In this document: positions 14,443 through 44,483 of the stretch, piece after piece
How the letters are laid out: each line of letters starts with the position of its first letter
Position numbering within the stretch: the stretch's first letter is position 1
Assembly (NCBI RefSeq): GCF_026162365.1
Contig: NZ_JAOANW010000005.1
Location: forward strand, 124,001 to 188,000
Length of the DNA stretch: 64,000 nt
From: Nitratireductor luteus
GTDB taxonomy: Bacteria > Pseudomonadota > Alphaproteobacteria > Rhizobiales > Rhizobiaceae
Direction of reading: 5' to 3'
Position numbers and translations under genes: made by a program
Notes under the pieces: model-generated
Seen by the model: the letters and a program-made list of their open reading frames with translations, nothing else
Databases searched by the model: none
What the model was told of the DNA's origin: nothing

Positions 14443-16113
14443 ATGCATCGCGCCGCGCTCTACGCCCGTTATTCGTCCGACAACCAGCGGGAAGCCTCCA
14501 TCGAGGACCAGTTCCGGCTTTGCGAGGAGCATGCGGCACGCGAAGGCTGGAAAGTCGTCCAGCGTCATTCGGATGCGGCGATCTCCGGTTCCAGCATGAT
14601 CCTGCGTCCCGGCATCCAGCAATTGCTCACCGATGCCCAGCGCGGTCTGTTCGACATCGTGTTGGCGGAGGCGCTCGACCGCCTGTCGCGGGATCAAGAG
14701 GACGTTGCCGGACTTTACAAACGGCTGCGCTTTGCCGGCGTCAAGATCGTGACCTTGTCCGAGGGTACGGTGGATGAACTCCACGTCGGCTTGAAAGGCA
14801 CCATGAACGCGCTGTTCCTGCGAGATTTGGCCGCCAAAATCAGGCGTGGTCAAAGCGGACGTGTCCTGAATGGCTATTCCGCTGGCGGCCTGTCCTATGG
14901 CTATCGCGTGGTCAAGAAGCTTGATGAGCGTGGTGAGCCGATCCGTGGGCTTAGGGAAGTCGATGAGGACCAAGCCGAGATCGTTCGGAGGATTTTCCGG
15001 GAGTTTGCGTCCGGGCAGTCTGCGCGGGCGATTGCTGCAGGGCTGAATCGAGACGGCATACCTTCCCCCTTTGGCGGGGAATGGAACGCTTCGACCATCA
15101 ATGGCAATCTCAAGCGGCGCAGCGGCTTTCTCTATAACGAGGCCTATATCGGCTTGCTCGTTTTCAACCGCGTCAAGATGGTCAAGGATCCCGAGACCGG
15201 CAGGCGCATCTCGCGGCCGAATCCGCCAGAGAAGTGGCAGGTCGTAGAAGCATCGCATTTGCGCATCATCGATGATGAGCTGTGGGATGCAGTGCACGCG
15301 CGCAAGAAGCTCTACGGTGGAGCAAGGCTCCATCATCGCCGACGGCCGAAGCACTTGTTCTCAGGCCTTGTCCGGTGCGGCTGCTGCGGCGCGTCCTACA
15401 CGGTGAAGAGCAAGGATCAGCTCACTTGTTCGGCCCATCGCGAAAAAGGAACCTGCGACAACGGCAGAACCATTCGTGTTGCCGAGCTTGCGCGACGCGT
15501 CCTTGAGGGCATCAAGAAATGCTTGCTGGCGCCCGATGCCATCGCCGGTTTTCTTGCCGAATATCATGCTGAACAGAAACGCCTGAACACCATTCATCGG
15601 CAGCACCGTCGGCACAGTGAAAAGCGGATTGCCAATATAGGGAGGCAAATCCGCAATATTGTTGATGCTATCGCCGACGGCGTTGCGACGGCCGGCATGA
15701 AGTCGAGGTTGCTTGAACTGGAGCGTGAGAAGGAGAACTTGGCTGAGGAGCTCAAGGCCATGGCCTCCGCAGAGAACGTCGTGGAATTCCACCCGGCCAC
15801 GGTCGAAGCCTATCGACGGAGGGTTTCGGAGCTTCAGGATGCATTACGTTCCGACGATAGCGAGCGCCGTGAAGCGGCGAATATCATCCGCTCGCTGGTC
15901 ACCCGTATTGAGATCGTGCCAAAGGAAGGCAGGGGACAGGTGGAGGTAAGAGTGCATGGCGCGCTCGCAGAGCTTATCAACCTGCCAAATCGCAAATCGG
16001 GTGAGGCGCCTAGGACTGTATTGATGGTAGCGGAGGACCGCTACCGTCAATCCCCATACCTACCGGAGATACGCTACAGGCTCCAATTGTTCTCTCGACG
16101 TCTGGCAGCGTAA
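14443..16113 (+). CDS. Large serine recombinase (site-specific integrase)
   Basis: This 556-residue recombinase probably integrates and excises the mobile element. The resolvase-type catalytic domain is at about 1-150, with YARYSSDNQ holding the catalytic Ser11 and LDRLSRDQEDVAGLYK further on. The Recombinase domain lies at about 165-270. A zinc-ribbon (VRCGCCGASY near 312, with later cysteines in LTCSAHREKGTCD) is followed by a long coiled coil at about 375-455. The C-terminal tail ends RQSPYLPEIRYRLQLFSR then RLAA. The gene is intact. Its last 88 bases recur as orphan copies at 33403 and 44134. No attachment core can be fixed from this window alone. Confidence 0.93.
   Translation: MHRAALYARYSSDNQREASIEDQFRLCEEHAAREGWKVVQRHSDAAISGSSMILRPGIQQLLTDAQRGLFDIVLAEALDRLSRDQEDVAGLYKRLRFAGVKIVTLSEGTVDELHVGLKGTMNALFLRDLAAKIRRGQSGRVLNGYSAGGLSYGYRVVKKLDERGEPIRGLREVDEDQAEIVRRIFREFASGQSARAIAAGLNRDGIPSPFGGEWNASTINGNLKRRSGFLYNEAYIGLLVFNRVKMVKDPETGRRISRPNPPEKWQVVEASHLRIIDDELWDAVHARKKLYGGARLHHRRRPKHLFSGLVRCGCCGASYTVKSKDQLTCSAHREKGTCDNGRTIRVAELARRVLEGIKKCLLAPDAIAGFLAEYHAEQKRLNTIHRQHRRHSEKRIANIGRQIRNIVDAIADGVATAGMKSRLLELEREKENLAEELKAMASAENVVEFHPATVEAYRRRVSELQDALRSDDSERREAANIIRSLVTRIEIVPKEGRGQVEVRVHGALAELINLPNRKSGEAPRTVLMVAEDRYRQSPYLPEIRYRLQLFSRRLAA
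16026..16113 (+). repeat. Recombinase 3'-end repeat, copy A (inside intact gene)
   Basis: These are the last 88 bases of the serine recombinase gene, including its stop codon. They match the orphan copies B (33403-33490; about 9 differences by eye) and C (44134-44217; more diverged). Similarity continues about 15 bases beyond the stop in A and B. Confidence 0.9.
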
Positions 16114-16333
16114 GTATGTTTACCGCATGATTTGTTTGGGGCCAGAACCGCCAGCCGGCTCCGGACCTCAGATCTGTCAAAGTGGACCGTCAGGTCGGCA
16201 CCTGGATCGTCGTGACGTGGAAATGGTGTAAACCGGTCGAACTAGAACAAATTGCAAGCGACAAACCCATACTCTATAACGAACGGATATAGGCTGGATC
16301 ATGTCGAATACTTAACTGGGGAGAAGTCGACCG

Positions 16334-17296
16334 GTGGATCTCAGGCAATTACGTTACTTCGCCCAGGTCGTGGATAGTGGTTCGTTTTCTAAGGCGGCAC
16401 AGGTCCTCCATGTCGCCCAGCCGGCACTCAGCCAACACGTCAGGCGCATTGAGGAAGAGCTTGGCATCCCGTTGCTGCATCGAACTGCGCGCGGCGTTGA
16501 GGCTACGGAGGCAGGCAGCCGACTCCATGTCCATGCCAAGCGTATCCTTGCAGATTTTGCCGAGATCCCCGACAGTGTCAGAGGTACATTTGTCCTTCCG
16601 CGGGGGGAAGTGCGCTTCGGCATGCCGGGCACGGTAAGCGAGTTGCTGGCGGTGCCTTTGATCGAAGCGGCAAAGCTCCGTTATCCGGATGTGAGGATCC
16701 GTGTCGTGGAAGCGATGAGCGGATATGTGCTCGAATGGCTCCGCCGTGACGAACTGGACCTCGCGATGATCTATGCCACGGCCGATCCGAGGGGGCTGGC
16801 GGTTCATTTGGGGCTGTCGGAAGAGATTTGCCTCTTCGCCAGCAAGGATTATGTGGGCCGTATCAAATCCGAACCGGAAACGATCCGGCTCGCCGACATT
16901 GCTGATTTGCCTCTGGTGGTGCCTGGGCCGAGACATGGGCTGCGCGATCTGATCGAAAGCAGCGCCACGGCGGCGCACATTGCAATCACCCCTGAGATCG
17001 AGATCGATTCATATAACCAGATCAAGAAGCTGGTGGATCGCGGAGTGGGCTACGGCATTCTTCCGCGGATGGCGATCAACAGGGAGGTCGAAGGCGACCT
17101 GTTCCGCGCATGGCGGTTCAAGGATCCGATGATAACGCGCAAGGTCTATCTCTCGTATTCGACCGAGCGGCCGCTTGCCGCAGCACCCCGCGCGATCGGC
17201 CAGTTGGGCTGGGAGATCCTCCGGGATCTGGTCCGCACGAAGCAGTGGACAGCGTCCCTTTCCGAAGAATCCCATCGCCCGAATCTCTATCCCTGA
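16334..17296 (+). CDS. LysR-family regulator of catabolic module 1
   Basis: This 320-residue protein has a LysR helix-turn-helix at its N-terminus (LRQLRYFAQVVDSGSFSKAA, then QPALSQHVRRIEEELGIPLL), in the Nac/CbbR-like style. An effector domain follows with PRGEVRFGMPGTVSELL and GYGILPRMAI. The start is the GTG at 16334 with GGGGAGAA upstream. It stands just before and in line with the CoA-transferase operon, 147 bases away, so it probably controls module 1. It directly follows the recombinase, so the module junction lies between 16113 and this gene. Confidence 0.93.
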   Translation: MDLRQLRYFAQVVDSGSFSKAAQVLHVAQPALSQHVRRIEEELGIPLLHRTARGVEATEAGSRLHVHAKRILADFAEIPDSVRGTFVLPRGEVRFGMPGTVSELLAVPLIEAAKLRYPDVRIRVVEAMSGYVLEWLRRDELDLAMIYATADPRGLAVHLGLSEEICLFASKDYVGRIKSEPETIRLADIADLPLVVPGPRHGLRDLIESSATAAHIAITPEIEIDSYNQIKKLVDRGVGYGILPRMAINREVEGDLFRAWRFKDPMITRKVYLSYSTERPLAAAPRAIGQLGWEILRDLVRTKQWTASLSEESHRPNLYP

Positions 17297-17443
17297 AGGG
17301 CGCGGTGCCCTGATCCCCTGGTTCCAGGGAGTGGCCTGAAAGGGGGTAAGACTTCGCTATAGCCCTCATTCAGAAACGGTATTTGACCCTGTCGATACCG
17401 CGGTGTGTTCTCGGGGAAACCGAATGAGGTATGGGAGAGTGCC

Positions 17444-18616
17444 GTGGCGGGCCCGCTAGAGGGAATCCTTGTTGTTGCGCTCGAACAGGCGGTGGCAGCT
17501 CCGATGGCCAGCTCACGGCTGGCGGATGCGGGTGCCAGGGTCATCAAGCTCGAAAGGCCGGAGGGCGATTTCGCCCGCAGCTATGACGCCTATGTGAACG
17601 GGCTCGCCAGCTACTTCGTCTGGAACAATCGCGGCAAGGAGTCCTGCGTCGTCGATCTCAAGACGCCGGGCGACCTCACGCTGGTCGAAGAGATGCTCGC
17701 AAGAGCCGATGTCTTCATCCAGAATCTGGCGCCCGGTGCGACCGACCGGCTGGGGATCGGGAGTGGCGACCTGCGCCGCCGCTTCCCACGCCTCGTTGTG
17801 TGCGACATCGCCGGCTATGCGCCGGGGACCCCTGACCACACGCGCAAGGCCTATGATCTTCTCGTACAGGCGGATGCCGGACTCTCGTCGATCACGGGTT
17901 CGGAAACATCGGGTCCTACCCGTGTCGGGGTGTCGATCTGCGACATCTCTACGGGCCAGGCCGCGTACGCCGCGATCGTAGAGGCGCTCTATGCACGGGA
18001 GAAGACGGGCAACGGAAGTCATATTGAGCTTTCGCTGTTCGATACGATGGCCGAATTCATGAACGTCCCGTACCTTGCGCGCAAATATGGCGGCAGCGAG
18101 CCGCCGCGTCCCGGCTTGGCTCATCCATCGATTGCGCCCTATGGCGTGTTCCACACCATTGACGGCGACATACTGATCTCGATCCAGAACGACCGCGAAT
18201 GGACGGTGCTATGCGAGACCGTGCTCGGCGATCCTGAACTGGCATCCGATCCGCGTTTCGCCACCAACAATGCGCGTGTCGCCAACCGCCCGGGCGCCGA
18301 TGCGCGCGTGCAGGAATCGTTTTCTCACCGGTCTTTCGCAGAACTCGCCGAACTGCTCGACCGGGTGCGCATCGCCTATGGCCGTGTCTCGAACATGGGA
18401 GACCTTATGGTCCACCGCAGCGTGACCGTGGCGAATGTCGAGACGGCAACAGGCACTGCCGAGCTTATCGCGCCGCCGGTCATCGTTGATGGACGGCGGC
18501 CCGAGCTCGGCAGGGTTCCGGCACTTGGAGAACACAGCGAAAGCATCCGCGAGGAATTCGTCACCGACAAATCCTCACGTCCCGAAGCGCACGCATCGGC
18601 AGGAGGAACGCAATGA
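17444..18616 (+). CDS. CaiB/BaiF (class III) CoA transferase
   Basis: This 390-residue enzyme moves CoA between carboxylic acids. The start GTG at 17444 has GGGAGAG five bases upstream; an upstream in-frame start at 17405 lacks one. Family marks are the N-terminal VIKLERPEGDFAR, the region NRGKESCVVDLKTPGDL, and the nucleophile aspartate in AYDLLVQADAGL (Asp138). In mesaconate, itaconate and citramalate pathways such enzymes activate the C5 dicarboxylate with succinyl-CoA or acetyl-CoA. The neighbours (hydratase, CoA-ester lyase) fit that role. It is coupled to the next gene by an ATGA overlap. Confidence 0.92.
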   Translation: MAGPLEGILVVALEQAVAAPMASSRLADAGARVIKLERPEGDFARSYDAYVNGLASYFVWNNRGKESCVVDLKTPGDLTLVEEMLARADVFIQNLAPGATDRLGIGSGDLRRRFPRLVVCDIAGYAPGTPDHTRKAYDLLVQADAGLSSITGSETSGPTRVGVSICDISTGQAAYAAIVEALYAREKTGNGSHIELSLFDTMAEFMNVPYLARKYGGSEPPRPGLAHPSIAPYGVFHTIDGDILISIQNDREWTVLCETVLGDPELASDPRFATNNARVANRPGADARVQESFSHRSFAELAELLDRVRIAYGRVSNMGDLMVHRSVTVANVETATGTAELIAPPVIVDGRRPELGRVPALGEHSESIREEFVTDKSSRPEAHASAGGTQ

Positions 18617-19941
18617 GTCTGACACAGGAACTGGTAAGTCTGATCCGCACCAAGCCGGTGGCCGATGCGGATCTTCAAAGCGCGGCGATGTTCGTGCTCG
18701 ATACCGTTGCCTGTGCGCTGGGTGCAGCCGAGAGCGAGCCGGCGCGCATGCTGGGCGCTGTTGCGCCGCCTGGGTGTGGCGACATGGCTCGCCGTGCCTT
18801 CTATTTCGGTGGCCTGTCGCACGTTCTGGAAATGGACGATCTGCACCGCGATTCCGTCACTCATCCCGGTTGCGTGGTTATCCCCGCGGCGTGGGCCGCA
18901 GCCGAAAGCCGCGATCTTGGCGGTATCGCCTTTCTGAAGGCGGTTCTGGCCGGCTATGAGGCATGTTGCCGGGTCGGCATGTCCGTCGGCAAGACGCATT
19001 ACAGGGTCTGGCACAACACCTCGACCTGTGGTCCCTTCGGTTCGGCGATGGCGGTCGCCGAGTTGATCGGCCTTTCCGACGAGGAGGCGGTATGGGCGCT
19101 TGGCAATGCCGGCACGCAATCGTCTGGCCTGTGGCAGTTCCTGGAATCAGGCTCGATGTCGAAGCATCTGCATACGGCGCGCGGTGCGGAATCGGGGGTG
19201 CTGGCCTCGCTGCTGGCGGCTGAAGGCTTCACCGGCGCAGCCGATATCCTGGAAGGGGACAAGGGCTTCTATGTTGGCTTGTGCCCCGACCCAGATCCGT
19301 CGGCGATCACCGCTGCTCCCTTCGGGCCGTGGGAGCTCACCAGAACGTCGATCAAGCCCTGGCCGTGTTGCCGCCATACCCATCCGACCATCGACGCGGC
19401 GATTGAGCTACACAGGCGTCTTGAGGGGGCTGAAATTCGCAAGGTGTCGGTCGGTGCCTATCAGGCGGCGCTCGATGTCTGCGACCGGCCGGACCCGCAG
19501 GACCCCTACAGCGCCAAGTTCTCGCTTCAGCACTGTGCCGCAATCGCGCTATGCGACGGCAAGGTGGAGCAGACGAGCTTCGATGCTTCGTCGCGGGCGC
19601 GGATAGCGGAGCAACGGTCGAAGGTTGAGCTTCACCTGTCTCCGTCGGTGAACGGCGCCTATCCGAAAGCCTGGGGCACGGAGGTCAGAGTCGAGACCAG
19701 CGATCGCCGTGTGCTCGAGGCAGTCCGGAACGAAGCGAAGGGCGATCCGGAGAATCCGATGAACGCGGACGAACTGTCGGCCAAGGCGCATGCACTTCTT
19801 GTCGAGGGGGGCATGCCGGCCGCCAAGGTCAGCGATCTAGTTTCTGCGATCCTCGACCTCGTCAACGACCGTCCTGTGCGCAGCCTTGGGTTGTTTGCGT
19901 CGGCCAATCACCCCAGTCCCCATTTCGCCCGGAGCGCCTAA
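18613..19941 (+). CDS. MmgE/PrpD family protein
   Basis: This 442-residue protein belongs to the family of 2-methylcitrate dehydratase (PrpD) and cis-aconitate decarboxylase. Visible marks are AMFVLDTVACALGAAESEPA near the N-terminus, HVLEMDDLHRDSVTHPGCVV with its conserved D and H residues, ECHR-like SSGLWQFLESGSMSKHLHTA, and KPWPCCRHTHPTIDA. The exact reaction cannot be told from sequence. In this context it could dehydrate, isomerise or decarboxylate a branched di- or tricarboxylate. It is translationally coupled to the CoA transferase and followed four bases later by an acyl-CoA dehydrogenase. Confidence 0.92.
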   Translation: MSLTQELVSLIRTKPVADADLQSAAMFVLDTVACALGAAESEPARMLGAVAPPGCGDMARRAFYFGGLSHVLEMDDLHRDSVTHPGCVVIPAAWAAAESRDLGGIAFLKAVLAGYEACCRVGMSVGKTHYRVWHNTSTCGPFGSAMAVAELIGLSDEEAVWALGNAGTQSSGLWQFLESGSMSKHLHTARGAESGVLASLLAAEGFTGAADILEGDKGFYVGLCPDPDPSAITAAPFGPWELTRTSIKPWPCCRHTHPTIDAAIELHRRLEGAEIRKVSVGAYQAALDVCDRPDPQDPYSAKFSLQHCAAIALCDGKVEQTSFDASSRARIAEQRSKVELHLSPSVNGAYPKAWGTEVRVETSDRRVLEAVRNEAKGDPENPMNADELSAKAHALLVEGGMPAAKVSDLVSAILDLVNDRPVRSLGLFASANHPSPHFARSA

Positions 19942-19944
19942 TCG

Positions 19945-21102
19945 ATGTTCACCACGCAAGACCACGAAGAGATTCGAGAAGCTGTCCGGAAGCTTTGCGA
20001 GCGATATCCTGCGGAATACTGGCGCGAACTAGATGTGAAACGAGCCTATCCTGAAGCCTTCGTCAACGCGCTCACGGAGGCCGGCTATCTCGCGACGCTG
20101 ATCCCGGAGGAATATGGCGGGTCGGGCCTGACGCTCTCGGCCGCTGCCGCGGTGTTGGAAGAAATTCACCGTTCTGGCGGCAATGGCGGCGCCTGCCACG
20201 CCCAGATGTATGTAATGGGCACGGTGCTGCGCCATGGTAGCGAAGCGCAGAAACAGAAATATCTTCCCGGTATCGCATCGGGCGACCTGCGCATGCAGGC
20301 ATTCGGCGTCACCGAGCCGACGAGCGGCACCGACACGACCTCTATACGAACCTTCGCGAGACGCGAGGGTGAACACTACGTCGTCAGCGGGCAGAAGATC
20401 TGGACGTCGCGCGCCGAACATTCGGATCTGATGCTGCTGCTTGCCCGCACGACGTTGAAGGACGAAGTTGCCAAGAAGACCGACGGGTTGTCGGTCTTCA
20501 TTCTCGACATGCGCGAGGCGCGGGGGAGCGGGCTTTCCATCCGTCCGATCCGCACGATGATGAATCATGCCACGACAGAGGTGTTCTTCGACAATGTGAA
20601 AGTGCCGGCCGAGAACCTGATCGGCGAGGAAGGAAAGGGCTTTCGCTACATCCTTTCCGGCATGAATGCCGAGCGAATCCTGATCGCCGCCGAATGCGTC
20701 GGCGACGCCAAGTGGCTGATCGAGAAGGCAGCCGGTTACGCAAAGGAACGCCATGTCTTCGGTCGCCCGATCGGCGCAAATCAGGGCATACAGTTTCCCA
20801 TCGCGCGCTCCTACGCCAATATGCGGGCCGCTGAACTCATGGTGCGCGAGGCGATCAGGCTCTACGAGGCGGGGGAGAATTGCGGCGCCGAGGCGAACAT
20901 GGCCAAGCTGCTCGCGGCCGATGCCTCCAACGAGGCCGCGAACGCCGCGATCCAGACGCATGGCGGCTTCGGGTTCGCCGAGGAATATGATGTGGAGCGC
21001 AAGTTCCGCGAGACGCGGCTCTATCAGGTCGCGCCGATCTCGACCAACCTGATCCTGTCCTACATTTCCGAGCATGTGCTCGGCATGCCGCGCTCCTACT
21101 GA
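19945..21102 (+). CDS. Acyl-CoA dehydrogenase, isovaleryl-CoA-dehydrogenase-like active site
   Basis: This 385-residue flavoprotein oxidises an acyl-CoA to the enoyl-CoA. The family order is seen: AFGVTEPTSGTDTTSI (FAD site), KIWTSRAEHSDLM, then the C-terminal helices with QTHGGFGFAEEYDVERKFRE. The usual catalytic glutamate position near the C-terminus reads YQVAPISTN, without a glutamate. Instead Glu243 in SGMNAERILIAAE aligns with the alternative base of isovaleryl-CoA dehydrogenase, an enzyme for branched substrates. In module 1 a methylsuccinyl-CoA-like substrate would fit, but this is inference. It lies four bases after the PrpD gene. Confidence 0.92.
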   Translation: MFTTQDHEEIREAVRKLCERYPAEYWRELDVKRAYPEAFVNALTEAGYLATLIPEEYGGSGLTLSAAAAVLEEIHRSGGNGGACHAQMYVMGTVLRHGSEAQKQKYLPGIASGDLRMQAFGVTEPTSGTDTTSIRTFARREGEHYVVSGQKIWTSRAEHSDLMLLLARTTLKDEVAKKTDGLSVFILDMREARGSGLSIRPIRTMMNHATTEVFFDNVKVPAENLIGEEGKGFRYILSGMNAERILIAAECVGDAKWLIEKAAGYAKERHVFGRPIGANQGIQFPIARSYANMRAAELMVREAIRLYEAGENCGAEANMAKLLAADASNEAANAAIQTHGGFGFAEEYDVERKFRETRLYQVAPISTNLILSYISEHVLGMPRSY

Positions 21103-21113
21103 ACGAGGCCAGA

Positions 21114-21989
21114 ATGCGCAGCATGGACGAGAATCCGTTCGCGGAATGGATAGGACGCAAAAGCGAGACAGAGGATATCGTCACGCCGCGCTTGGTCGCG
21201 AGCTTCCGCGCCACGTTCGGCCATTACCTGGCACCGTTGGGGGAAGGGGAGGCGCCGCTCGGCATCCATTGGTGCCTGTCACCGGCGATGGCGCCGATGG
21301 AAGCACTTGGAGCGGACGGGCACCCGGCAAAAAACCGCGACCTCCCGCCGATACCACTGCCACGGCGGATGTGGGCCGGCGGCAGGGTCGAGAGCCACGG
21401 ACCCATCCGCGTGGGAGACCGCGTGAGACGGGAATCGACAATCGGTTCCATCACGCGCAAGCAGGGACGCAGCGGCGAATTGTGGTTCGTCGCCATGCAC
21501 CACGACTACAGCACGCCGCGCGGCCTTGCCATTCGTGAACGGCACGACATCGTCTATCGCGAAGCGGCGAGGCCGGGCGGCGGCCGGTCGGTCAAGCGAT
21601 CCGATGAGAACGCAGGATTCGCGGACATGATCGACGGCTCCTGGGTGGTGGAGACGACGCCAACCTTGCTGTTCCGCTATTCCGCTTTGACCTTCAACGG
21701 CCACCGCATTCACTACGACCAGGACTATGCGACGCGCGAGGAGGGCTATCCGGGCCTCGTCGTCCACGGGCCCTTGCAAGCCACCTTGCTCTACAATCTC
21801 ACGGCCGTAAGCATGGGTCGAACGCCGCGCCACTTCGATTATCGCGGATTATCGCCGGCGATCGCGGGAAACCCGATACGTGCCCGTCAATCGGCGGAGA
21901 ACAGCTCCCTATTCATCACCGAAGGTGTTTCCGGCACCATCCATATGGAAGCGAGCGTGCAGGAACACGGGGAAGGAAAATCGTCATGA
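21114..21989 (+). CDS. HTD2-type hotdog hydratase (mesaconyl-CoA hydratase-like)
   Basis: This 291-residue double-hotdog protein belongs to the HTD2/FAS1-like dehydratase group. The group includes mesaconyl-C4-CoA hydratase and itaconyl-CoA hydratase. The C-terminal hotdog carries the signature RYSALTFNGHRIHYDQDYA, with the catalytic His and Asp, and YPGLVVHGPLQATLL. The N-terminal half has RRMWAGGRVESHGPIRVGD. It would add water to a 2-methyl- or methylene-branched enoyl-CoA to give citramalyl-CoA or a relative. The CoA-ester lyase at 32390 could then cleave this. It overlaps the aldehyde dehydrogenase by ATGA. Confidence 0.88.
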   Translation: MRSMDENPFAEWIGRKSETEDIVTPRLVASFRATFGHYLAPLGEGEAPLGIHWCLSPAMAPMEALGADGHPAKNRDLPPIPLPRRMWAGGRVESHGPIRVGDRVRRESTIGSITRKQGRSGELWFVAMHHDYSTPRGLAIRERHDIVYREAARPGGGRSVKRSDENAGFADMIDGSWVVETTPTLLFRYSALTFNGHRIHYDQDYATREEGYPGLVVHGPLQATLLYNLTAVSMGRTPRHFDYRGLSPAIAGNPIRARQSAENSSLFITEGVSGTIHMEASVQEHGEGKSS

Positions 21990-23458: not shown

Positions 23459-23477
23459 GCAGGAAGGCGCGGACGGA

Positions 23478-24989: not shown

Positions 24990-25023
24990 GATCCGTCATC
25001 CTACGCCAGGCGGAGAGGCTCGC

Positions 25024-25262
25024 CTATCGCCGGGACGGCAGGAAAACGTGCTGGATGATGCGACCGCTTTCCAGATCCTCGAGCGCCTCGTTGATTCCCT
25101 CAAGTGGCCCATTCCCGACAGCACCCTGTCGACGGACAGTATTCCGCGCCGGTACATCTCGAAATACTGCAGTATGTTACGCGATGGAATGCAGCTGCCA
25201 ATATAGCTTCCCTTGAGCGTGCATTCCTCGGCTGCCAGCGACACCTGCTGTATCGAGAGCGG
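25024..25262 (-). pseudogene. C-terminal remnant of a zinc-type alcohol dehydrogenase (frameshifted)
   Basis: Reading the minus strand from about 25262 gives PLSIQQVSLAAEECTLKGSY then IGSCIPSRNILQYFEMYRRG and VDRVLSGMG. This is the conserved C-terminal pattern of zinc-dependent alcohol dehydrogenases. A frameshift follows; in the next frame the sequence continues LEGINEALEDLESGRIIQ and ends with a TAG at 25024, again as expected of that family. The first three quarters of the gene are missing. It lies upstream of the fumarase gene on the same strand, so module 1 has lost a dehydrogenase. Confidence 0.75.
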
Positions 25263-25541
25263 ACTGGCGGCGCATGACCGCGTGACAGATTCGGATGACG
25301 AGTGACTGGCCACGATGTACCTCCCTTTATGGTCGCAAGTTTGCAGCTCCCCGGCGACGATTGCCAATAGCGAAGCGTTATGCCGCCTATAAGAGCGCCG
25401 CAGGCAAAGACGTTCATGCAGCTATATCGGGGCGTTATAGCCCACCAAGCGAATCTGTCTTTGCAATGCTGGCGCAAGACGAGGACCATCGCGGAAGTGG
25501 AGGAGCGCGCAACTATTGCGCCGTATCATATGGAGGAACCC

Positions 25542-26846: not shown

Positions 26847-26854
26847 TCCTCCCG

Positions 26855-33644: not shown

Positions 33645-33676
33645 ATGGATTCATGAGGGTGAACAGGGAGAGAGGA

Positions 33677-34921: not shown

Positions 34922-34942
34922 GGAGGTCGAAGGGAGGAGAAC

Positions 34943-36616: not shown

Positions 36617-36644
36617 AACTCGCTGATCGGCAAGGAGCACTGAC

Positions 36645-37790: not shown

Positions 37791-38293
37791 CGATCCCCTA
37801 CGCGTTTTTTCCACCAACCGAGGAAGTCATCTCGGACGAGCCTCTGGTGCTCAGGCGCGTTGTGCGCTGGGGCGACTGCGACCCGGCGGGTGTCGCCTAC
37901 ACGCCGCGTTTTCTCGACTATGTCGTCTCGGCTCACGAAGCCTTCATCAGCCTGATGCTCGGCGGGTCGATCCACACGCTGAAGGATCGGCTCAACGTCG
38001 ATTTCCCGGTGCGGGGCGTCGAGATCGATTTCCGCGATCGTCTGCCACTCGACACTCAATTCGACATGGAGGTGCGTGTCGGCGAGATTCGTACCCGTAC
38101 GTTCGACCTGCACATCCGCGCCCATAAGCTGGAGGCGGAGGGCAAACGGCAGGGCCCGCTGGCGTTCACCGCACGGATATCGCCCGTGACACTCAGCCAC
38201 GAGACCCGTGTCGCGGTGGCGCTTCCGGAGAGCTTCAAGAACCGCGTGGTCGCTTACGCCGCGGCACATCCCGCAAACAAGGAGGAAAACTGA
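37787..38293 (+). CDS. 4-hydroxybenzoyl-CoA thioesterase-family protein
   Basis: This 168-residue single-hotdog thioesterase carries the 4HBT signature VRWGDCDPAGVAYTPRFLDY, with the catalytic aspartate in DCDPAG. It would release the hydroxylated aromatic acid (gentisate-like) from CoA after the monooxygenase step. It overlaps its upstream and downstream neighbours by 4 and 1 bases, so translation is coupled with both. Confidence 0.92.
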   Translation: MTIPYAFFPPTEEVISDEPLVLRRVVRWGDCDPAGVAYTPRFLDYVVSAHEAFISLMLGGSIHTLKDRLNVDFPVRGVEIDFRDRLPLDTQFDMEVRVGEIRTRTFDLHIRAHKLEAEGKRQGPLAFTARISPVTLSHETRVAVALPESFKNRVVAYAAAHPANKEEN

Positions 38294-39054
38294 TGCGCGC
38301 CTATCGCGTAGGCCAGATCGTGCCCTCATCGAACATCACGATGGAAACCGAGATCCCGGCAATGCTGCGAGCACGTGAGACGATCCGACCGGAGAGGTTC
38401 ACATTCCACTCGAGCCGCATGCGTATGAAGAAGGTGACACAAGAAGAACTCACCGCGATGGACCGGGATTCGCTGCGTTGTGCGCGAGAGCTCGCCGATG
38501 CTGACGTGGACGTGATGGGATATGCCTGCCTCGTCGCAATCATGAGCCAGGGCCTTGGCTATCACTGCGTGTCCAAATCCAATCTGGAGGGCGCTATCGC
38601 GGAAGAGGGCAAGGAGATCCCAGTCGTGTCTTCGGCCGGTGCTTTGGTCGACGGGTTGAAGGAACTTCGAGTCAAGCGTGTCAGCTTGCTGATGCCCTAC
38701 ATGAAGCCGCTGGCCGACCGTGTCACCGACTACATCGCAAGCGAGGGCTTCGAGATCCATGACAGCCTAGCGCTCGAGATCGAGGACAATCTGGCGGTCG
38801 CTGCCCGCGATCCGATGGCCCTCGTCGAGGACGTCAAACGCCTCGAGACAAAGGGGGTCGACGCGGTGGTGCTGTCTTGCTGTGTGCAGATGCCATCGCT
38901 ACCGGCGCTGGCGCCCGTCGAGGCGCGCCTCGGTATCCCGGTCACCTCGGCTGCCGCGTGCACGGTCCGGGCGATGCTTACGGAAATGAACCTCGAACCG
39001 GTAGCCCCGGCGGCTGGAGCGATCCTCGCCCCAGCCTTGCAGCCGGCTGCCTAA
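38293..39054 (+). CDS. Maleate cis-trans isomerase (Asp/Glu racemase superfamily)
   Basis: This 253-residue protein matches maleate isomerase closely: YRVGQIVPSSNITMETEIPA near the start, FHSSRMRMKKVTQEEL, then the two catalytic cysteines at Cys79 (GYACLVAIM) and about Cys196 (VLSCCVQMP). The enzyme turns maleate into fumarate. It is known from nicotinate breakdown and fits gentisate routes that yield maleate by hydrolysis of maleylpyruvate. Its presence implies that the ring-cleavage product of module 2 gives maleate or a maleate derivative. Confidence 0.92.
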   Translation: MRAYRVGQIVPSSNITMETEIPAMLRARETIRPERFTFHSSRMRMKKVTQEELTAMDRDSLRCARELADADVDVMGYACLVAIMSQGLGYHCVSKSNLEGAIAEEGKEIPVVSSAGALVDGLKELRVKRVSLLMPYMKPLADRVTDYIASEGFEIHDSLALEIEDNLAVAARDPMALVEDVKRLETKGVDAVVLSCCVQMPSLPALAPVEARLGIPVTSAAACTVRAMLTEMNLEPVAPAAGAILAPALQPAA

Positions 39055-39110
39055 TCTCAACCAAACCGACAGCGCCGACAATGGCGCGCAAGCAATGGGA
39101 GGAACCAAAA

Positions 39111-40085
39111 ATGAAGACCCTTGCGAAACTGCTTGCCTGCACCGCTCTCGTCTCCATCGCCAACATGGCATCGGCCGAAACCGTAGTCCGCATGCTCAAG
39201 ACCTGGGACGACCGCTATCCGGGTTCGGTCGTGATTTGCGACCGCTATGCGGAGCTTCTGACCGAAGCCTCGGGTGGCGAGATCGTCGTTCAGATGTCAG
39301 GCCCCGAGACCATACCGCCGCTGGAACAGCTGGAACCCACGCAGAATGGCCTGTTTCAGGTGCTGTGCACGTATCCGGGGTTCCATACCGGCTCGGCGAC
39401 TCTTCTGACCGGGCTCGAGAGCATTCGACCAGATGCGCAGGCATTCCGCGAAAGCCGCGCCATGGAGGTTGTGCGGGAGACCTACGGCGCCCTTGGTCTG
39501 CACGCGATCTCGGTGCCGTTAGGTCACGGCTACTGGATCTACCTCAACCGCGATCTCTCCGGTTCGGGAGACTTGTCGGGGATGCAGATCCGTGCGCTGC
39601 CGCCGCAGCATCCCTATATCAGCGCAATCGGAGGAACGCCGGTGGTTCTTCCGCCGGCGGAGATGTTCAGCGCACTTGAGCGCGGGGTCGTTGACGGGGC
39701 GCTGTTTCCCGCGGCGGGAGCGACCGGCTACGGTTTCACCGAGGTGACCGACCGCTATTTTGATACCCGGGTGTCGTCGCCGCACGTCATTCTGGCCAAC
39801 CAGACGTTTTGGGACGGCCTGCCCGGGGACGTCCGCAAGGTCTTCATTGACCAGGCAGAGGTGTTGGAAAACGAAATGCCCGGCACCTACGATCGGCTAA
39901 ATGAGGAAGAGCATGAGCGGATGGCGGAAGCTGGGATGGAGCGCCTGACCCTGTCAGACGAAGTTGCAGCGCGCCTGTCTCACGCCATCGTCGAAGGCTC
40001 CTGGAGCTTTGCTGCCAGTCGCGACGCCGACGCCGCTGGGCGCCTGCGCAACATCGTCGAAGGTGCGGGCCTACTGCTCGAATAG
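39111..40085 (+). CDS. TRAP transporter solute-binding protein (DctP family)
   Basis: This 324-residue periplasmic protein starts at 39111 with GGGAGGAA upstream and a signal peptide (MKTLAKLLACTALVSIANMA, then SA). The mature part has the DctP fold, with VVRMLKTWDDRYPGS, QIRALPPQHPYISAIGGTPV and a DGALFPAAGATGYG segment. Ligand residues cannot be read directly, but the operon suggests an aromatic acid. A GC-rich inverted repeat follows before dctQ. Confidence 0.92.
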   Translation: MKTLAKLLACTALVSIANMASAETVVRMLKTWDDRYPGSVVICDRYAELLTEASGGEIVVQMSGPETIPPLEQLEPTQNGLFQVLCTYPGFHTGSATLLTGLESIRPDAQAFRESRAMEVVRETYGALGLHAISVPLGHGYWIYLNRDLSGSGDLSGMQIRALPPQHPYISAIGGTPVVLPPAEMFSALERGVVDGALFPAAGATGYGFTEVTDRYFDTRVSSPHVILANQTFWDGLPGDVRKVFIDQAEVLENEMPGTYDRLNEEEHERMAEAGMERLTLSDEVAARLSHAIVEGSWSFAASRDADAAGRLRNIVEGAGLLLE

Positions 40086-40098
40086 ACCAGTGCGGCAT

Positions 40099-40128
40099 CC
40101 GCCGGGCCGTGATTCGTCCGGCCGGCGG
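40099..40128 (+). terminator. Inverted repeat after the TRAP binding-protein gene
   Basis: CCGCCGG (40099-40105) pairs with CCGGCGG (40122-40128), with further partial pairing inside. It is 14 bases after the stop. Like the hairpins after the Liv and Dpp binding-protein genes, it may raise binding-protein expression over the permeases. Confidence 0.5.
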
Positions 40129-40148
40129 TCTGGAAGGGAGGAGAAGCA

Positions 40149-40679
40149 GTGGTCTCTGTTATGGGAAAGATTCACGATCGTTCCAGTGAAGTTGGCCTCT
40201 GGCTGGGTATTGCGGCGCTGGCCGCCATCGCGTCCCTGTCCTTCATCGCCACCATGTCGCGGTATTTTCTGGCCGCGCCGATCGGCTGGGTGCCGGACTG
40301 GGCTGGCTATCTGCTGGCCGCATCGGTTTTTGTCACTACGCCAGCAGTGACCCGGCGCGGCCAGCACGTTGCCATGGACATCCTGATCTCCTACTTCACG
40401 GCGCCCGCGGTCCGGCGGCTTCTCGGGGGCGGTTCATTGCTCCTGACACTGGCGATCCTCGCAGTCATGAGTTGGATCGTCTGGCAATCGCTCGCCACGG
40501 CCTTCAAAGCCGGTACGCTGACTGCGGCCGGATATCCGATTCCACGCTGGTGGCTTCTCGCGTTCATCTTCTACGGGTTCGCATCCTCGGGTCTGCACGT
40601 CCTGCGAATGCTATTCGAAGTCCTGGGCGGAAAGAACGTCGACCAAGCCGTTCCCCACGCCGAGCCGGAGGGATTTTGA
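40149..40679 (+). CDS. dctQ: TRAP transporter small permease (DctQ family)
   Basis: This 176-residue protein has four hydrophobic segments (for example GIAALAAIASLSFIATMSRY and LLLTLAILAVMSWIVW) and the DctQ pattern DWAGYLLAASVFVTTPAVTR. The start is the GTG at 40149 with GGGAGGAGA upstream; ATG 40161 is an alternative. It links the binding protein to the large permease. Confidence 0.9.
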   Translation: MVSVMGKIHDRSSEVGLWLGIAALAAIASLSFIATMSRYFLAAPIGWVPDWAGYLLAASVFVTTPAVTRRGQHVAMDILISYFTAPAVRRLLGGGSLLLTLAILAVMSWIVWQSLATAFKAGTLTAAGYPIPRWWLLAFIFYGFASSGLHVLRMLFEVLGGKNVDQAVPHAEPEGF

Positions 40680-40681
40680 TC

Positions 40682-41971
40682 ATGCCGATCTATGCCGGTG
40701 GCGTCCTCCTCTTCGCGCTGTTTCTTCTTGGGGTACCCGTCTTTGCGGCCTTTTTCGGCTTCAACATCTTTGCGGCGCTGACGCTCATGGGGCCGCAGAT
40801 GCTGTCGATTTTTTCGGCCTCTATCCTCGATACTGTCACCACTTCCGAACTCGTTACGGTACCGCTGTTCATCCTACTCGGTGAACTCCTGTTCCGCTCC
40901 GGCTGCATTACCATCCTGTTCGACGCCGTGGATGACATCGTTGGCCGGGTCCGCGGGCGGCAATACGTCATCGTGGTGCTCATCTCGGTGCTGCTTGGCG
41001 CACTCTCTGGCTCCGCCATCGCTGTCGCGGCAATGCTCGGGCGCACGGTCATGGCTGAGGGGGTCGAGCGAGGCGGCGACAAGCATCTTCTGTCGGGGCT
41101 TGTCCTCGGCGGTGCCTGTCTCGCCCCGATCATTCCACCGAGCTTCCTCGTGGTCCTGATCGGCATGCTCTCGGGAACTTCGATCTCGGCTTTGCTGGCG
41201 GCTGGCGTGTTGCCCGGTATCGTGGCTGGCGTGCTGTTCTTCTTCTACATCCAAGTGCTGCTCTGGCGCGATCCGTCGCGCGACATTACGCGCGGTAACG
41301 ACAGGCCGCGCGGTCCGGTGTGGAAGGCGGTACTGTCGCTCCTGCCGTTCTCCATCGTGATCTTCGCTGTACTCGGCTTGATCCTGCTCGGCGTCGCCAC
41401 GCCCAACGAATCGGCGGCCTGTGGCGTGTTCGGTGCACTCGCGGTCGCGGCGATCTACCGTAAGCTCTCCGCGTCGATGCTGGTCGAAGCGCTCAAGGGC
41501 TCGATCCTGATGTCCTCGATGATCCTGCTGATCATGGCGGCCTCGAAGATCCTCACGCAGCTCATGGCATTTTCCGGTCTGACGAACGATCTCGTCGCGG
41601 TCTTCACCGCGCTTGATCTGCCGGCGGTCGCGGTCCTCGTACTCCTGATGCTCATCCCCTTCGTGCTTTGCATGTTCCTCGACCAGATCGCGCTCATGCT
41701 GATCCTGATCCCGATTTACAAACCGCTCTTGGTCACTTTCGGTTTCGACCCGCTGGTGTTCTGGACCCTGTTCCTTCTGAACCTGACGCTTGGGGCGATC
41801 ACACCGCCGTTTGGCTATGCACTCTTCGCGCTTAGCGCATCCAGCCCGCGCGCAGTTGGTCTGAGGGACATCTATGCCGCCTCCTGGCCATTTATCGGAC
41901 TGATCGTTCTGACGCTTGTTCTGGTATGGGCGTTTCCGCCACTCGCCACCTGGCTGCCGTCGCGGTTATGA
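40682..41971 (+). CDS. dctM: TRAP transporter large permease (DctM family)
   Basis: This 429-residue permease has about a dozen membrane segments. DctM patterns include VPLFILLGELLFRSG, LGALSGSAIAVAAMLGRTVM, ACLAPIIPPSFLVVLIGMLS and LGAITPPFGYALFALSASSP. It starts two bases after the dctQ stop. Its 3' end overlaps the convergent TetR gene by six bases. With DctP and DctQ it forms a complete TRAP system driven by an ion gradient. Confidence 0.94.
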   Translation: MPIYAGGVLLFALFLLGVPVFAAFFGFNIFAALTLMGPQMLSIFSASILDTVTTSELVTVPLFILLGELLFRSGCITILFDAVDDIVGRVRGRQYVIVVLISVLLGALSGSAIAVAAMLGRTVMAEGVERGGDKHLLSGLVLGGACLAPIIPPSFLVVLIGMLSGTSISALLAAGVLPGIVAGVLFFFYIQVLLWRDPSRDITRGNDRPRGPVWKAVLSLLPFSIVIFAVLGLILLGVATPNESAACGVFGALAVAAIYRKLSASMLVEALKGSILMSSMILLIMAASKILTQLMAFSGLTNDLVAVFTALDLPAVAVLVLLMLIPFVLCMFLDQIALMLILIPIYKPLLVTFGFDPLVFWTLFLLNLTLGAITPPFGYALFALSASSPRAVGLRDIYAASWPFIGLIVLTLVLVWAFPPLATWLPSRL

Positions 41972-42700
41972 CCGACGCAGTCGAGCGAAGCGGTCAAGAA
42001 GCGCCTTGAGACCCAGTTCGAAAGCGTCATCAGCACGGACCCGTGCGAAGGCGCGCAATCCGAATTCCAGCCCGGGCATCTCGCCGGATTGGTAGGCGTT
42101 GGCCTTCTCTATGAGAAAATTCTCATGGGCAGCAGGTTCCAGCCGGGTATTCGCCGATGTAGCGGTCGCCAGGCAGTGTAATGCGAGCACATGATAGAAA
42201 ATGGCGGTAGTTTCCGCATCGAAGCCTGCATCCTTGAGCATGGAAAAGGTCTGGTCGAGGTAGCGCGCACCATAGTCCGTCTCGCCATCACGAACCTTCT
42301 GGAACACCCGGAACCGCGCATGGCGCTGAATGTGCTCGGCCGCGCCGACATGGCTGCGTTCGCAGTTCATCAGTATGCGCGCGAATAGCGTCACGCGGTC
42401 TCGCCATCCAAGGTCGCCTGGTATTCCGTCGAGCTTGGCCAGAAGCTCCTTGTAGAAGCGGTTCAGGATGGCGGAGGCGAGATCGTCCTTGGTGCCAATG
42501 TGATAATGTAGCGCACCGGGCTTCACACCGAGTTCGCGGGCCATCTGCACGAAAGAAACATTGTCGATCGATTGGGTCCGGGCCTGATCGTATGCCAGAT
42601 CCACGATCATCTGGCGGTTGACCAGGCCTTCGCCTGCGTCGCCATTGGACCGGGGGCGCCCACGGCCTCGTTTCGTTTCCCGAACTGCGTTCATATGCAT
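41966..42700 (-). CDS. TetR-family repressor of module 2
   Basis: This 244-residue protein has a basic N-terminal tail (GRGRPRSNGDAG), the TetR helix-turn-helix (LVNRQMIVDLAYDQARTQ, FVQMARELGVKPGALHYHIG) and a long ligand domain. The start is at 42700 (or 42694). An open frame that extends upstream to 43270 runs antisense through the VOC gene and is not used. It is divergent from the VOC gene, with the palindromic core at 42752-42767 between them, so it probably represses both the VOC set and the hydrolase operon at 33677. Confidence 0.9.
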   Translation of the reverse strand: MHMNAVRETKRGRGRPRSNGDAGEGLVNRQMIVDLAYDQARTQSIDNVSFVQMARELGVKPGALHYHIGTKDDLASAILNRFYKELLAKLDGIPGDLGWRDRVTLFARILMNCERSHVGAAEHIQRHARFRVFQKVRDGETDYGARYLDQTFSMLKDAGFDAETTAIFYHVLALHCLATATSANTRLEPAAHENFLIEKANAYQSGEMPGLEFGLRAFARVRADDAFELGLKALLDRFARLRRS

Positions 42701-42745
42701 TTTATTGCCATACTCACAATTTCCTTGGCAACCTGATTTAATTGA

Positions 42746-42772
42746 GATACTATCAATAATAATTGATGAGAT
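42746..42772. promoter_or_regulatory. Probable TetR operator between TetR and VOC genes
   Basis: ATCAAT (42752-42757) and ATTGAT (42762-42767) form a perfect inverted repeat with the spacer AATA, flanked on the left by GATACT and on the right by GAGATC. The core RTCAAT-N4-ATTGAY with a GATAC flank is the same as in the palindrome at 33601-33644. Confidence 0.65.
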
Positions 42773-42796
42773 CCGCTCGCTAAGGGAGACACAGGA

Positions 42797-43501
42797 ATGC
42801 CGGAAAAACTGGGAACCCGGGAAGACGCGTCGTCCGCGAAGAGTTTCAACGATGCGATGGGGGTCGGCACCGGTGAGTTGACGGGGACCCGACACGCTTC
42901 CGAGGACGGCGTGCAGCTTGTCCTTCGCGGGGTCGATCACACCGCGCGACCGACATGGAAGCTCAACGAGACGGTGGAGTTTTATCGCGATATCCTCGGC
43001 CTGCCGCTTGTTCATGCGATCAGTGCGCGGGGCTGGGGGCCTCCGGGACATCACGACTTCCTCCATTTCTTCTTCGATGCGGGAAAAGGCGCGACGATCG
43101 CATTCTTCTACTACATCGGAAGCGAGCGGCCCGAGAGATACGGGCCCGAGGAACACCATTTCTATTTCGCGACCCACACTGCCTGGGCCGTGGATACGGA
43201 AGAAGAGCTCATCCAGTGGAAGGAAACGCTCGAGAACCGTGGCATCAAGGTTTCGCCCTATACGAAACACGAGATCCTCGAATCGATCTACTTCACCGAT
43301 CCCAATGGTTATCCCGTCGAGATTACGCGGCGGCTCAGGGAGACGGAACTGATCGATGAGGTAGACGCGAAACTGACGATCCAGGCCGCGCTGGAAATCG
43401 AGACCGAATCCCGGGAGGCCGGTCAGCTGATGCCCGATATCGACACTGTTTGGCGTCGCAAGGCCAAGCTGGTCGACGCCTACAAGGAGAGCGCCTCATG
43501 A
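42797..43501 (+). CDS. VOC-superfamily protein, possible ring-cleavage dioxygenase
   Basis: This 234-residue protein has a vicinal-oxygen-chelate fold: VLRGVDHTARPTWKLNETVE, EFYRDILGLPLVHAIS, then HFYFATHTAWAVDTEEEL and ESIYFTDPNGYPVEITRR. His in GVDHTA, His in ATHTAW and Glu in PVEITRR are positioned like the two-His-one-carboxylate metal site of type I extradiol dioxygenases and glyoxalases. About 45 N-terminal and 50 C-terminal residues lie outside the fold. No other ring-cleaving enzyme is recognisable in module 2, so this is the best candidate. GGGAGAC precedes the ATG. Confidence 0.8.
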   Translation: MPEKLGTREDASSAKSFNDAMGVGTGELTGTRHASEDGVQLVLRGVDHTARPTWKLNETVEFYRDILGLPLVHAISARGWGPPGHHDFLHFFFDAGKGATIAFFYYIGSERPERYGPEEHHFYFATHTAWAVDTEEELIQWKETLENRGIKVSPYTKHEILESIYFTDPNGYPVEITRRLRETELIDEVDAKLTIQAALEIETESREAGQLMPDIDTVWRRKAKLVDAYKESAS

Positions 43502-43758
43502 TCGAGGTTCATGTCATCGACGTGCCCGAGTTTCGGCCGATGGTCGAAACCCAACGCGACAATCCCGAGGTTACGATCTCGGGTCCGGTCAAGGGCTACT
43601 GGACAATCCAGGCCCCGACCCAACTCACCTTCTCCCGGAAGGCGATGAAGATGAAACCGGCTGTCTGGTACGGCATCTTCACCGGTGGGCTCAATGGCGA
43701 GATCGCCGAATGGGGCCGGGATGAAGTGCGCGTCATTGGCACGAACCGTCCGCTCTGA
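43498..43758 (+). CDS. Small uncharacterised protein coupled to the VOC gene
   Basis: This 86-residue protein starts at an ATG that overlaps the VOC stop (ATGA). The sequence (MIEVHVIDVPEFRPMVETQR, GYWTIQAPTQLTFSRKAMKM, WYGIFTGGLNGEIAEWGRDE) looks like a compact beta-rich domain. I do not recognise a family. Tight coupling suggests a subunit or partner of the VOC enzyme. Confidence 0.75.
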   Translation: MIEVHVIDVPEFRPMVETQRDNPEVTISGPVKGYWTIQAPTQLTFSRKAMKMKPAVWYGIFTGGLNGEIAEWGRDEVRVIGTNRPL

Positions 43759-43798
43759 AAGGGGTGGCCGATCAGGTACAGTAAGAGAGGAGAGGAAG

Positions 43799-44059
43799 AT
43801 GTTTGCGAAGCTCGCAAGGCATGACGGCCTGATGGCTGCCATGTCGCGGCGAGCAGGCCTCGATCTGGGCGAAGCTCTCCTGAACGGTCGCCTAAACCCA
43901 GCAGAGTACCGTGGAACGGTGGTGCGTTGCATCGGCTGTCGACATTCCGAAAAATACAGCCTATTGCTGGCCGACGAACGCGAAACTGGGCCTGTGCCGG
44001 AATACTGCGCAAATAGGGGCTTTTTCCGCAATCTGAGTGGAGTGCGATCGAAAAGCTGA
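43799..44059 (+). CDS. DUF6455-family small cysteine protein
   Basis: This 86-residue protein has GLMAAMSRRAGLDLGEALLN, then VVRCIGCRHSEKYSLLLADE and EYCANRGFFRNL. The arrangement of RC..C and YCxN matches DUF6455, a family seen in Rhizobiales and Rhodobacterales. It may bind iron-sulfur or another metal, possibly for electron transfer to a neighbouring oxygenase. GAGAGGAAG precedes the ATG. One of the usual cysteines seems replaced (KYS), which weakens the metal-binding idea. Confidence 0.7.
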   Translation: MFAKLARHDGLMAAMSRRAGLDLGEALLNGRLNPAEYRGTVVRCIGCRHSEKYSLLLADERETGPVPEYCANRGFFRNLSGVRSKS

Positions 44060-44483
44060 GGCACTGATCGCCACTGGGTAAACGTCGCTCTGGCGTGGTC
44101 TAGCATAGGGGGATGCAACGTTAGGGTATCGAGTCTGAGGACAGCTGCCGCCAATCCCCACACCTACCGGAAGTACGCTACAGGCTCCGATTGTTCTCTC
44201 GGAACTTGGCAGCGTAGGCATCCCTACAGCTTGTCTTGTCTGGGACTGGAACAGACGATCTGCTTCCGGCTGCGGGGTTGTAGGATGGCTAACGTTCGGC
44301 CACCGACCGCATCTTAGCCATTCAGCGGGCCTTCGTTTGGCTGTTTCCGCTGCCGCCCCTCATTGGGCGATGGCGACAGATGGCTCCGATGTCTATCTGC
44401 CCGAGGCGGACATTGAGAACGTGACTTGAATACGAGACAGCTTCGCTGCTTGAGCTTAACGAGCAATCCCGGGTATCTGCCGG
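44060..44483. other. Gap between modules 2 and 3
   Basis: About 420 bases lie between the DUF6455 gene and the convergent LysR gene. Apart from recombinase tail copy C at 44134-44217 I see no gene or regulatory structure here. Confidence 0.6.
44134..44217 (+). pseudogene. Orphan 3' end of a serine recombinase gene, copy C
   Basis: The segment encodes SCRQSPHLPEVRYRLRLFSR then NLAA and a TAG, matching the C-terminus of the intact recombinase. It is a little more diverged than copy B. Sequence upstream is unrelated to the recombinase. It lies at the left edge of module 3, in the same orientation as copies A and B. Confidence 0.85.

What the first reader, a model, noticed from the sequence alone, without database searches (positions are those of the whole stretch)
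16026..44217. Three copies of a serine recombinase 3' end mark the left edges of three catabolic modules
The last 88 bases of the intact recombinase gene (16026-16113) recur at 33403-33490 and 44134-44217, in the same orientation and without the rest of the gene. All three keep the reading frame to the stop (RQSP-LPE/D-RYRL...LAA). Divergence between copies (about 9 of 88 between A and B, more in C) argues against a recent duplication. Each copy immediately precedes a self-contained module with its own regulator and transporter. A simple reading is repeated integration at, or loss from, recombinase-linked sites, leaving gene tails as scars. An alternative is that the recombinase targets the 3' ends of related recombinase genes. 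I know of no description of such tail arrays as module borders.
Basis: partly seen in the sequence, partly recalled or inferred. Interest (0 to 1): 0.78.

Follow-up and report, generated by a model that had tools for sequence, protein, structure and literature searches.

The report
Stacked gene islands at a tRNA
The three repeated gene tails are the left ends of mobile gene islands stacked beside a tRNA-Met gene, and each tail appears to supply an interchangeable last piece for the enzyme that inserts such islands.

Summary
The repeat is real (A 16026-16113, B 33403-33490, C ~44138-44217), but the tails are not scars of recombinase genes. They are attachment-site arms: left ends of islands stacked at the 3' end of a tRNA-Met(CAT) gene 8 kb right of the window. 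A recombinase identical over residues 1-531 runs straight into that tRNA in another Chelativorans genome; in the window it runs into tail A, the start of the next island. Tail-like arms sit on the 3' side of tRNA-Met, same orientation, in 10 of 15 genomes examined. The tail pairs, as an inverted repeat, with the arm of a different integrase (type II) found at tRNA-Met in two other genomes and not found in this one. The most unusual point: the att site lies inside the integrase's 3' end. 10 of 14 close relatives and 28 of 29 tRNA-adjacent members of a second clade terminate in tRNA sequence, and the tail is conserved as codons up to its stop. So the integrase C-terminus seems to be encoded at the island's far end and joined only on circularisation; its function is inferred. 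Closest known: Dehalococcoides ssrA islands; archaeal suicidal integrases.

The parts
14443..16113 (+). Large serine recombinase (integrase) of type I; native body to about 16035, last codons supplied by the next island
   Evidence: Resolvase, Recombinase and zinc-ribbon Pfam domains; 100% identical over residues 1-531 to G004:C1:901527-903119, which ends in tRNA-Met
16014..16035 (+). P arm of the type I att site, inside the integrase 3' end (GACTGTATTGAT + GGTAGCGGAG)
   Evidence: Inverted-repeat partner of type I arms: 19 of 26 positions against the G128 arm, 14 of 26 against tail A
16036..16113 (+). Tail A: P' arm of type II, left end of island E2, read in frame as EDRYRQSPYLPEIRYRLQLFSRRLAA*
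33403..33490 (+). Junction and tail B: core 33403-33412, P' arm 33413-33490, left end of island E3
44138..44217 (+). Tail C: P' arm, left end of island E4; left half of the core not conserved
5309..16035 (.). Right part of island E1 (relaxase, Hachiman pair, integrase); its left end was not found
16036..33412 (.). Island E2, 17.4 kb, no integrase seen: LysR regulator, CoA/acyl-CoA enzymes, LIV-type ABC transporter (names largely from reading the ORFs)
   Evidence: Borders; LysR by Pfam; ORFs; no syntenic match in 15 congeners
33413..44139 (.). Island E3, 10.7 kb, no integrase seen: AMP-binding ligase, FAD enzyme, TRAP-like transporter, TetR-like regulator, glyoxalase-family protein (transporter and regulator names from reading the ORFs)
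   Evidence: absent from 15 congeners except a 279-base match
44140..64000 (.). Island E4 as far as the window; continues to tRNA-Met(CAT) at window-equivalent 72065-72141 (G000:C40:196065-196141, minus strand)

Best explanation
Tails A, B and C are the left (P') attachment-site arms of three islands stacked in tandem at the 3' end of one tRNA-Met(CAT) gene. Large serine recombinases of this family recombine an att site whose core, GGTAGCGGAGGA, is the antisense of the tRNA 3' end. Each element has its integrase at the right end, with the integrase 3' end overlapping the core, and a P' arm at its left end that is the inverted-repeat partner of the integrase-side arm. When integrated, the integrase ORF ends inside the tRNA. 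When another island enters at the tRNA, its P' arm is placed behind the older integrase, so that ORF ends in the new island's tail; this is what happened at A. Shown by sequence: the tRNA target, the shared core, the divergence of the same integrase gene exactly at the core, the orientation rule, the arm pairing, and codon-level conservation of the tail. Inferred: the order of integration events, trans-mobilisation of the integrase-less islands E2-E4, and that in the excised circle integrase plus P' arm make the full-length enzyme.
For: (1) G004 carries the same integrase (100% over residues 1-531) running into tRNA-Met(CAT) at the same chromosomal locus; identity stops at the core. (2) The orthologous tRNA 3' end was found in 16 of 16 Chelativorans genomes; an integrase of this type sits directly on it in G004, G006 and G012. 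(3) In 10 of 15 genomes chosen because they carry a tail-like arm, the arm lies within 0.5-126 kb on the 3' side of tRNA-Met in the same orientation (G427, G312, G128, G065, G241, G410, G231, G350, G209, G041). (4) Arm pairing over 26 positions: five type I integrase arms match the type I P' arm at 18-20 and tails A/B/C at 11-15; the two type II arms (G231, G416) match A/B/C at 19-22 and the type I arm at 14-15. (5) Two examples show both ends of one element: G128 (28.9 kb, type I arm and 75.7% identical integrase) and G410 (17.7 kb). (6) 10 of 14 close integrases end in tRNA-Met sequence and one (Nitratireductor, L113) ends in the same tail type as the window. (7) In 19 tails, differences in codons 10-26 fall 23/23/73 by codon position, 72 synonymous against 40 expected, 0 of 5000 permutations, and conservation drops after the stop.
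Against: Three tails are not near tRNA-Met: G004:C1:2906109, a second copy in G350, and G230; in G402, G416, G260 and G267 the arm and the tRNA are on different contigs. The left ends of E1 and of the G004, G006 and G012 islands were not found (17 to 50 kb searched). The right ends of E2-E4 are not type II arms (E2 and E4 10-14 of 26, E3 4-7), so these islands are incomplete or of a kind I do not fully understand. Segment GC is flat, 0.613-0.627, in and outside the islands. The first 10 of the 26 paired positions are the tRNA-derived core and inflate every score; no shuffle control was run. No circular form was seen in sequence data (0 hits in viral contigs; two partial hits in plasmids).
Confidence: 0.9

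Rival explanations
1. One reading: the tails are scars of formerly complete recombinase genes that were lost.
For: The tail reads as a recombinase C-terminus and 18 of 19 copies keep the frame to the common stop.
Against: No integrase remnant was detected upstream of tails B and C or of the orphan tails in other genomes inspected (tblastn of the 1.5 kb upstream), while arm pairing and tRNA position explain why only this part is present. The same integrase without the tail ends in the tRNA.
Confidence: 0.04
2. The tails are island ends, but the codon pattern is a by-product: the P' arm is kept only as DNA bound by the integrase and its reading frame has no function.
For: Half-site codons 1-9 show no codon-position bias (14/13/14). 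Other P' arms (type I, L105, L110, G410, G241) encode quite different peptides, some are frameshifted (L041, L017), so no one peptide is required.
Against: Beyond the half-site the bias is 23/23/73 with an excess of synonymous changes, the shifted frames do not show it (31 and 34 synonymous against 84), and conservation ends at the stop. The 19 tails share ancestry, so the permutation overstates independence.
Confidence: 0.2
3. The stack arose by accretion of integrase-less islands through attL x attR recombination (CIME-like) or by homologous recombination between tRNA loci, not by successive attP x attB integrations.
For: E2-E4 lack an integrase; right ends of E2 and of several integrase-less islands elsewhere are A+T-rich (AAAATTTT-like) rather than type II arms. 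G004 and the window share only the last 2.0 kb of E1 (98.3%), so parts are exchanged.
Against: No empty site or donor was found; order of events cannot be read from these data.
Confidence: 0.4
4. Conserved structural or regulatory RNA.
For: The core is an inverted repeat.
Against: No Rfam family in the window; the inverted repeat is split between island ends in integrated elements; codon-level conservation.
Confidence: 0.02

Closest known systems
Dehalococcoides ssrA-specific genomic islands (McMurdie et al. 2011, PMC3146451; passages seen)
   Same: Tandem catabolic islands downstream of a single RNA gene, bounded by direct repeats of its 3' end; serine recombinase integrase (DsiB); many islands without an integration module, described as possible cis-mobilizable elements joined by accretion.
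   Different: Target is tmRNA; the repeat is 20 bp; the passages seen report no integrase reading frame crossing the att site and no coding conservation of the distal arm.
Archaeal suicidal (SSV-type) tyrosine integrases (review PMC8371274; passages seen)
   Same: att site lies inside the integrase gene, integration splits it, and chimeric integrases can form.
   Different: Tyrosine recombinases; the gene is cut into N and C halves and inactivated. The review calls self-disrupting recombinases exclusive to archaea. Here a bacterial serine recombinase only exchanges its last 10-30 residues.
Mycobacteriophage BPs integration-dependent immunity (PMC4557955; abstract and passages seen)
   Same: attP inside an ORF, so the protein's C-terminus depends on integration; the long form carries an ssrA-like degradation tag. 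13 of 19 type II tails end in LAA.
   Different: There the split gene is the repressor; here it is the integrase, and degradation is not tested.
Serine recombinases that use tRNA genes (mycobacterial AICEs at tRNA-Leu and phage RSM1 at tRNA-Ser, in PMC3218068; passages seen)
   Same: Serine integrase, tRNA gene target.
   Different: That paper calls it rare, and Islander (PMC4383910, passages) says only tyrosine integrases were known to target tDNAs; the present family is widespread in Alphaproteobacteria.
Mesorhizobium ICEs and IMEs (PMC8627217; passages seen)
   Same: Elements adjacent to tRNA-Met; [quoted passage not shown]
   Different: The passages do not link the serine recombinases to tRNA-Met or describe C-terminal exchange.

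Membership tests
Large serine recombinase (integrase) | N-terminal resolvase domain, recombinase domain and zinc ribbon | tested here: met
   PF00239, PF07508, PF13408 all above cut-off
Large serine recombinase (integrase) | Recombines attP x attB | not testable with these tools
   Needs an assay
tRNA-targeted genomic island | Intact tRNA at one end and its 3' fragment repeated at the far end in the same orientation | tested here: met
   GGTAGCGGAGG at 16026 and 33403 and in tRNA-Met at window-equivalent 72066; not conserved in the left half of C
Tandem island array with own integrase per island (Islander definition) | Each member carries its own integrase | tested here: not met
   Only E1 has one; the tblastn search of the own genome finds no full integrase in E2-E4
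Cis-mobilizable element (CIME) | Functional attL and attR without integrase or transfer genes | tested here: inconclusive
   P' arms present, right arms atypical; function not testable here
Integrative and mobilizable element (E1) | Integrase plus relaxase, no full conjugation system | tested here: inconclusive
   Integrase and MobA/VirD2-like relaxase with DUF3363; left end unknown, so the content is not bounded
Suicidal integrase | Tyrosine recombinase split into two inactive halves by integration | tested here: not met
   Serine recombinase; only the C-terminal codons after about residue 531 change

The most novel reading that the evidence does not exclude
A bacterial serine-integrase family keeps the last exon-like piece of its own gene at the opposite end of the island. 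Integrated next to a tRNA, the enzyme ends in a tRNA-antisense peptide (EGLEPPTQGL or GFEPAAFRL); circularised, it ends in a conserved peptide from the P' arm (in type II usually ...SRLLAA); in a stack, it takes the neighbour's peptide and becomes a chimera. The C-terminus would then report integration state, and an LAA end could mark the circle or stacked form for ClpXP-like degradation, limiting re-excision.
Probability: 0.4. Interest if true: 0.78.

Novelty: new variant of a known kind. Interest (0 to 1): 0.6.

Why it matters
It turns a puzzling repeat into a rule for finding island ends: an integrase ORF that ends in a tRNA, or in a stray conserved peptide, shows where an island starts and which integrase type placed it. 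It documents serine integrases at tRNA-Met across Alphaproteobacteria, where tRNA targeting was long credited to tyrosine integrases (passages). If the state-dependent C-terminus is functional, it gives bacteria a counterpart of the archaeal split integrase and a simple way for an element to sense whether it is integrated, free or stacked. The degron idea would be directly testable.

Tried and rejected
Scar of lost recombinase genes: rejected, see rivals. Structural RNA: no Rfam hit in the window. tRNA inside the window: none; it lies 8 kb to the right. Left end of E1: no type I arm in C40:104001-228000 with up to 4 substitutions except the integrase's own arm on the opposite strand. Common left flank of the tRNA locus in congeners: none found in the stretches compared, which range from 79 bases (G014) through 3-4 kb (G007, G013) to 17-50 kb. 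A second tRNA near the G004 stray tail turned out to be tRNA-Phe. Conserved right end for integrase-less islands: only G427 and G350 share a short motif. Viral contigs: 0 matches to the joined type II core pattern. Plasmids: two partial Methylocystis hits, no integrase annotated in the 6 kb viewed. Structure prediction was not used. Type II integrase in the own genome: best matches 41-44%, being type I and other-site integrases. G275 had a weak DNA hit (E 3.9e-4) that looked like a chance match within a coding frame, and I left it out. From 24 tail hits I dropped five before the codon test: L098 (partial), L100 (indel), L017 (no core match), L020 and L092 (weak). Two 'stop' changes counted in codons 1-26 come from codons with more than one change, by my reading.
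Full report
Observation. The three tails are present as described and form the only three-copy direct repeat found in the window. They differ by 9 to 13 of 80 bases. The upstream ORF 14443-16113 carries the three domains of a large serine recombinase. Copy C starts at about 44138 rather than 44134.

What the tail is. A search of relatives with the tail gave hits whose core, GGTAGCGGAGGA, is the antisense 3' end of a tRNA with CAT anticodon. The window's contig has such a tRNA-Met gene at G000:C40:196065-196141, window-equivalent 72065-72141, on the minus strand, right of all three tails. In G004 an integrase identical over residues 1-531 ends in this tRNA; identity to the window's DNA stops at the core. 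So tail A is not this gene's own 3' end. It is what was inserted between integrase and tRNA.

Generality. A scan of named genomes puts the window's kin in Chelativorans and kept 80 of 132 loci. Of the 14 closest integrases (69-89%), 10 end in tRNA-Met sequence with the C-terminus VA(E/G)EGLEPPT-GL (nine at a full tRNA gene, L106 at a fragment); L113 from Nitratireductor ends in the same tail type as the window; L105, L110 and L112 end in other arms, the last two with an interrupted ORF. Of the remaining 66 loci (about 50% identity), 29 have a tRNA-Met within 400 bases of the match end, and 28 of these ORFs end 43 bases inside it, as VAG-GFEP--FRL. This second tRNA-Met has a different 3' end; that it is the initiator is my guess. 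In three integrases of that clade the ORF runs into a palindromic arm instead (L064, L130, L135).

Island ends elsewhere. Of 397 genomes of the order, 11 matched the core pattern and 13 matched tail B by DNA. I took 15 genomes from these (G000 and G275 left out) and looked for tRNA-Met: in 10 the arm is on the 3' side of the tRNA, same contig and orientation, 0.5 to 126 kb away; in 4 (G402, G416, G260, G267) the contigs differ; in G230 it is far away. G350 has a second, distant copy, and G004 has a distant tail at C1:2906109. Five of the 10 (G128, G065, G241, G410, G041) carry arms of other types than the window's.

Two integrase types. G231 and G416 carry a different integrase (43-44% identical to the window's) at tRNA-Met whose arm reads GTGTGGGGATTG(A/G)T-GGTAGCGGAG, the inverted repeat of the window's tails. 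Over 26 positions, type II arms match A/B/C at 19-22, and the window's own integrase arm matches them at 12-15 but the type I arm at 19. Ten of the 26 positions are the shared core, and no shuffle control was run. G000 has no type II integrase above 44%; G003 has a broken one 10.3 kb from its tRNA-Met. So the modules E2-E4 seem to have been placed by an enzyme no longer present, or by one acting in trans.

The modules. E2 (17.4 kb), E3 (10.7 kb) and E4 (27.9 kb, running 8 kb past the window) each hold regulator and transporter genes; this is partly Pfam and partly my reading of the ORF list. E3 is missing from 15 congeners except for a 279-base match. E2 has only 0.4-1.4 kb matches of 65-74% in 14 of 15. 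E4 was not searched genome-wide. At the tRNA locus itself, the left flanks examined in the 15 congeners (79 bases to 50 kb) share no E2 or E3 sequence with the window. GC content does not differ between islands and flanks.

A C-terminus encoded elsewhere. In the integrated state the integrase ORF ends in the tRNA. The distal P' arm, when joined to the integrase in a script for four elements, continues the frame to a stop: G128 ...VAEDRYRQYSAAIEFMC, G231 ...VAEDRYRQSPHLPEIRYRLRLFSRLLAA, G410 and G065 likewise. Among 19 type II tails, codons past the half-site have 23/23/73 differences by codon position and 72 synonymous changes where 40 are expected (0 of 5000 permutations as high); shifted frames give 31 and 34; conservation falls from 0.83 before the stop to 0.35 within 40 bases. 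Fifteen of 19 end in AA, 13 of these in LAA, one has lost the stop. The tails are related, so the permutation is not a strict probability. Type I arms keep a different peptide (YRQYS-ATEF-C in three of five; two are shifted or different). I read this as selection on the integrase that forms when the island is circular. That LAA acts as a degradation signal is a guess from the ssrA-like tag in phage BPs (passages).

Known or new. Tandem catabolic islands at an RNA gene with a serine integrase are known from Dehalococcoides (passages). Serine integrases at tRNA genes were called rare (passages) or unknown (passages). Self-splitting integrases were called exclusive to archaea (passages). In searches of the open-licence library I saw no listing describing a serine integrase whose C-terminus is exchanged at its att site; those listings were capped, and most subscription papers are not held.

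Noticed in passing
window 1610-1685, minus strand: Another orphan arm, of the second tRNA-Met clade (GGTTGCGGGGGCTCGCAACCACCGATACC), in frame as VAGARNHRYRHSLAVPV*, pointing left; it may mark a further island end.
   Followed up: partly
window 8651-12222, minus strand: A Hachiman anti-phage pair (HamB, HamA) lies on the integrase-bearing island E1.
   Followed up: partly
G000:C11:29205-29227 and G000:C19:7988-8016: Two further core-plus-arm relics on other contigs of the same genome, with no tRNA found in the 20 kb around them.
   Followed up: partly
window 13982-16025 versus G004: Only the last 2.0 kb of E1 is shared with the G004 island (98.3%), which suggests the integrase module is exchanged between islands.
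   Followed up: no
left of tRNA-Met in G002, G007, G010, G015: Similar right-end sequences, unlike the integrase-bearing islands, hint at another element type using the same tRNA.
   Followed up: no
G000:C40 about window-equivalent 71940-71990: A degraded tRNA-like fragment (ttttggtagcgg...gaacccccgac) just left of the intact tRNA-Met, possibly an older insertion.
   Followed up: no
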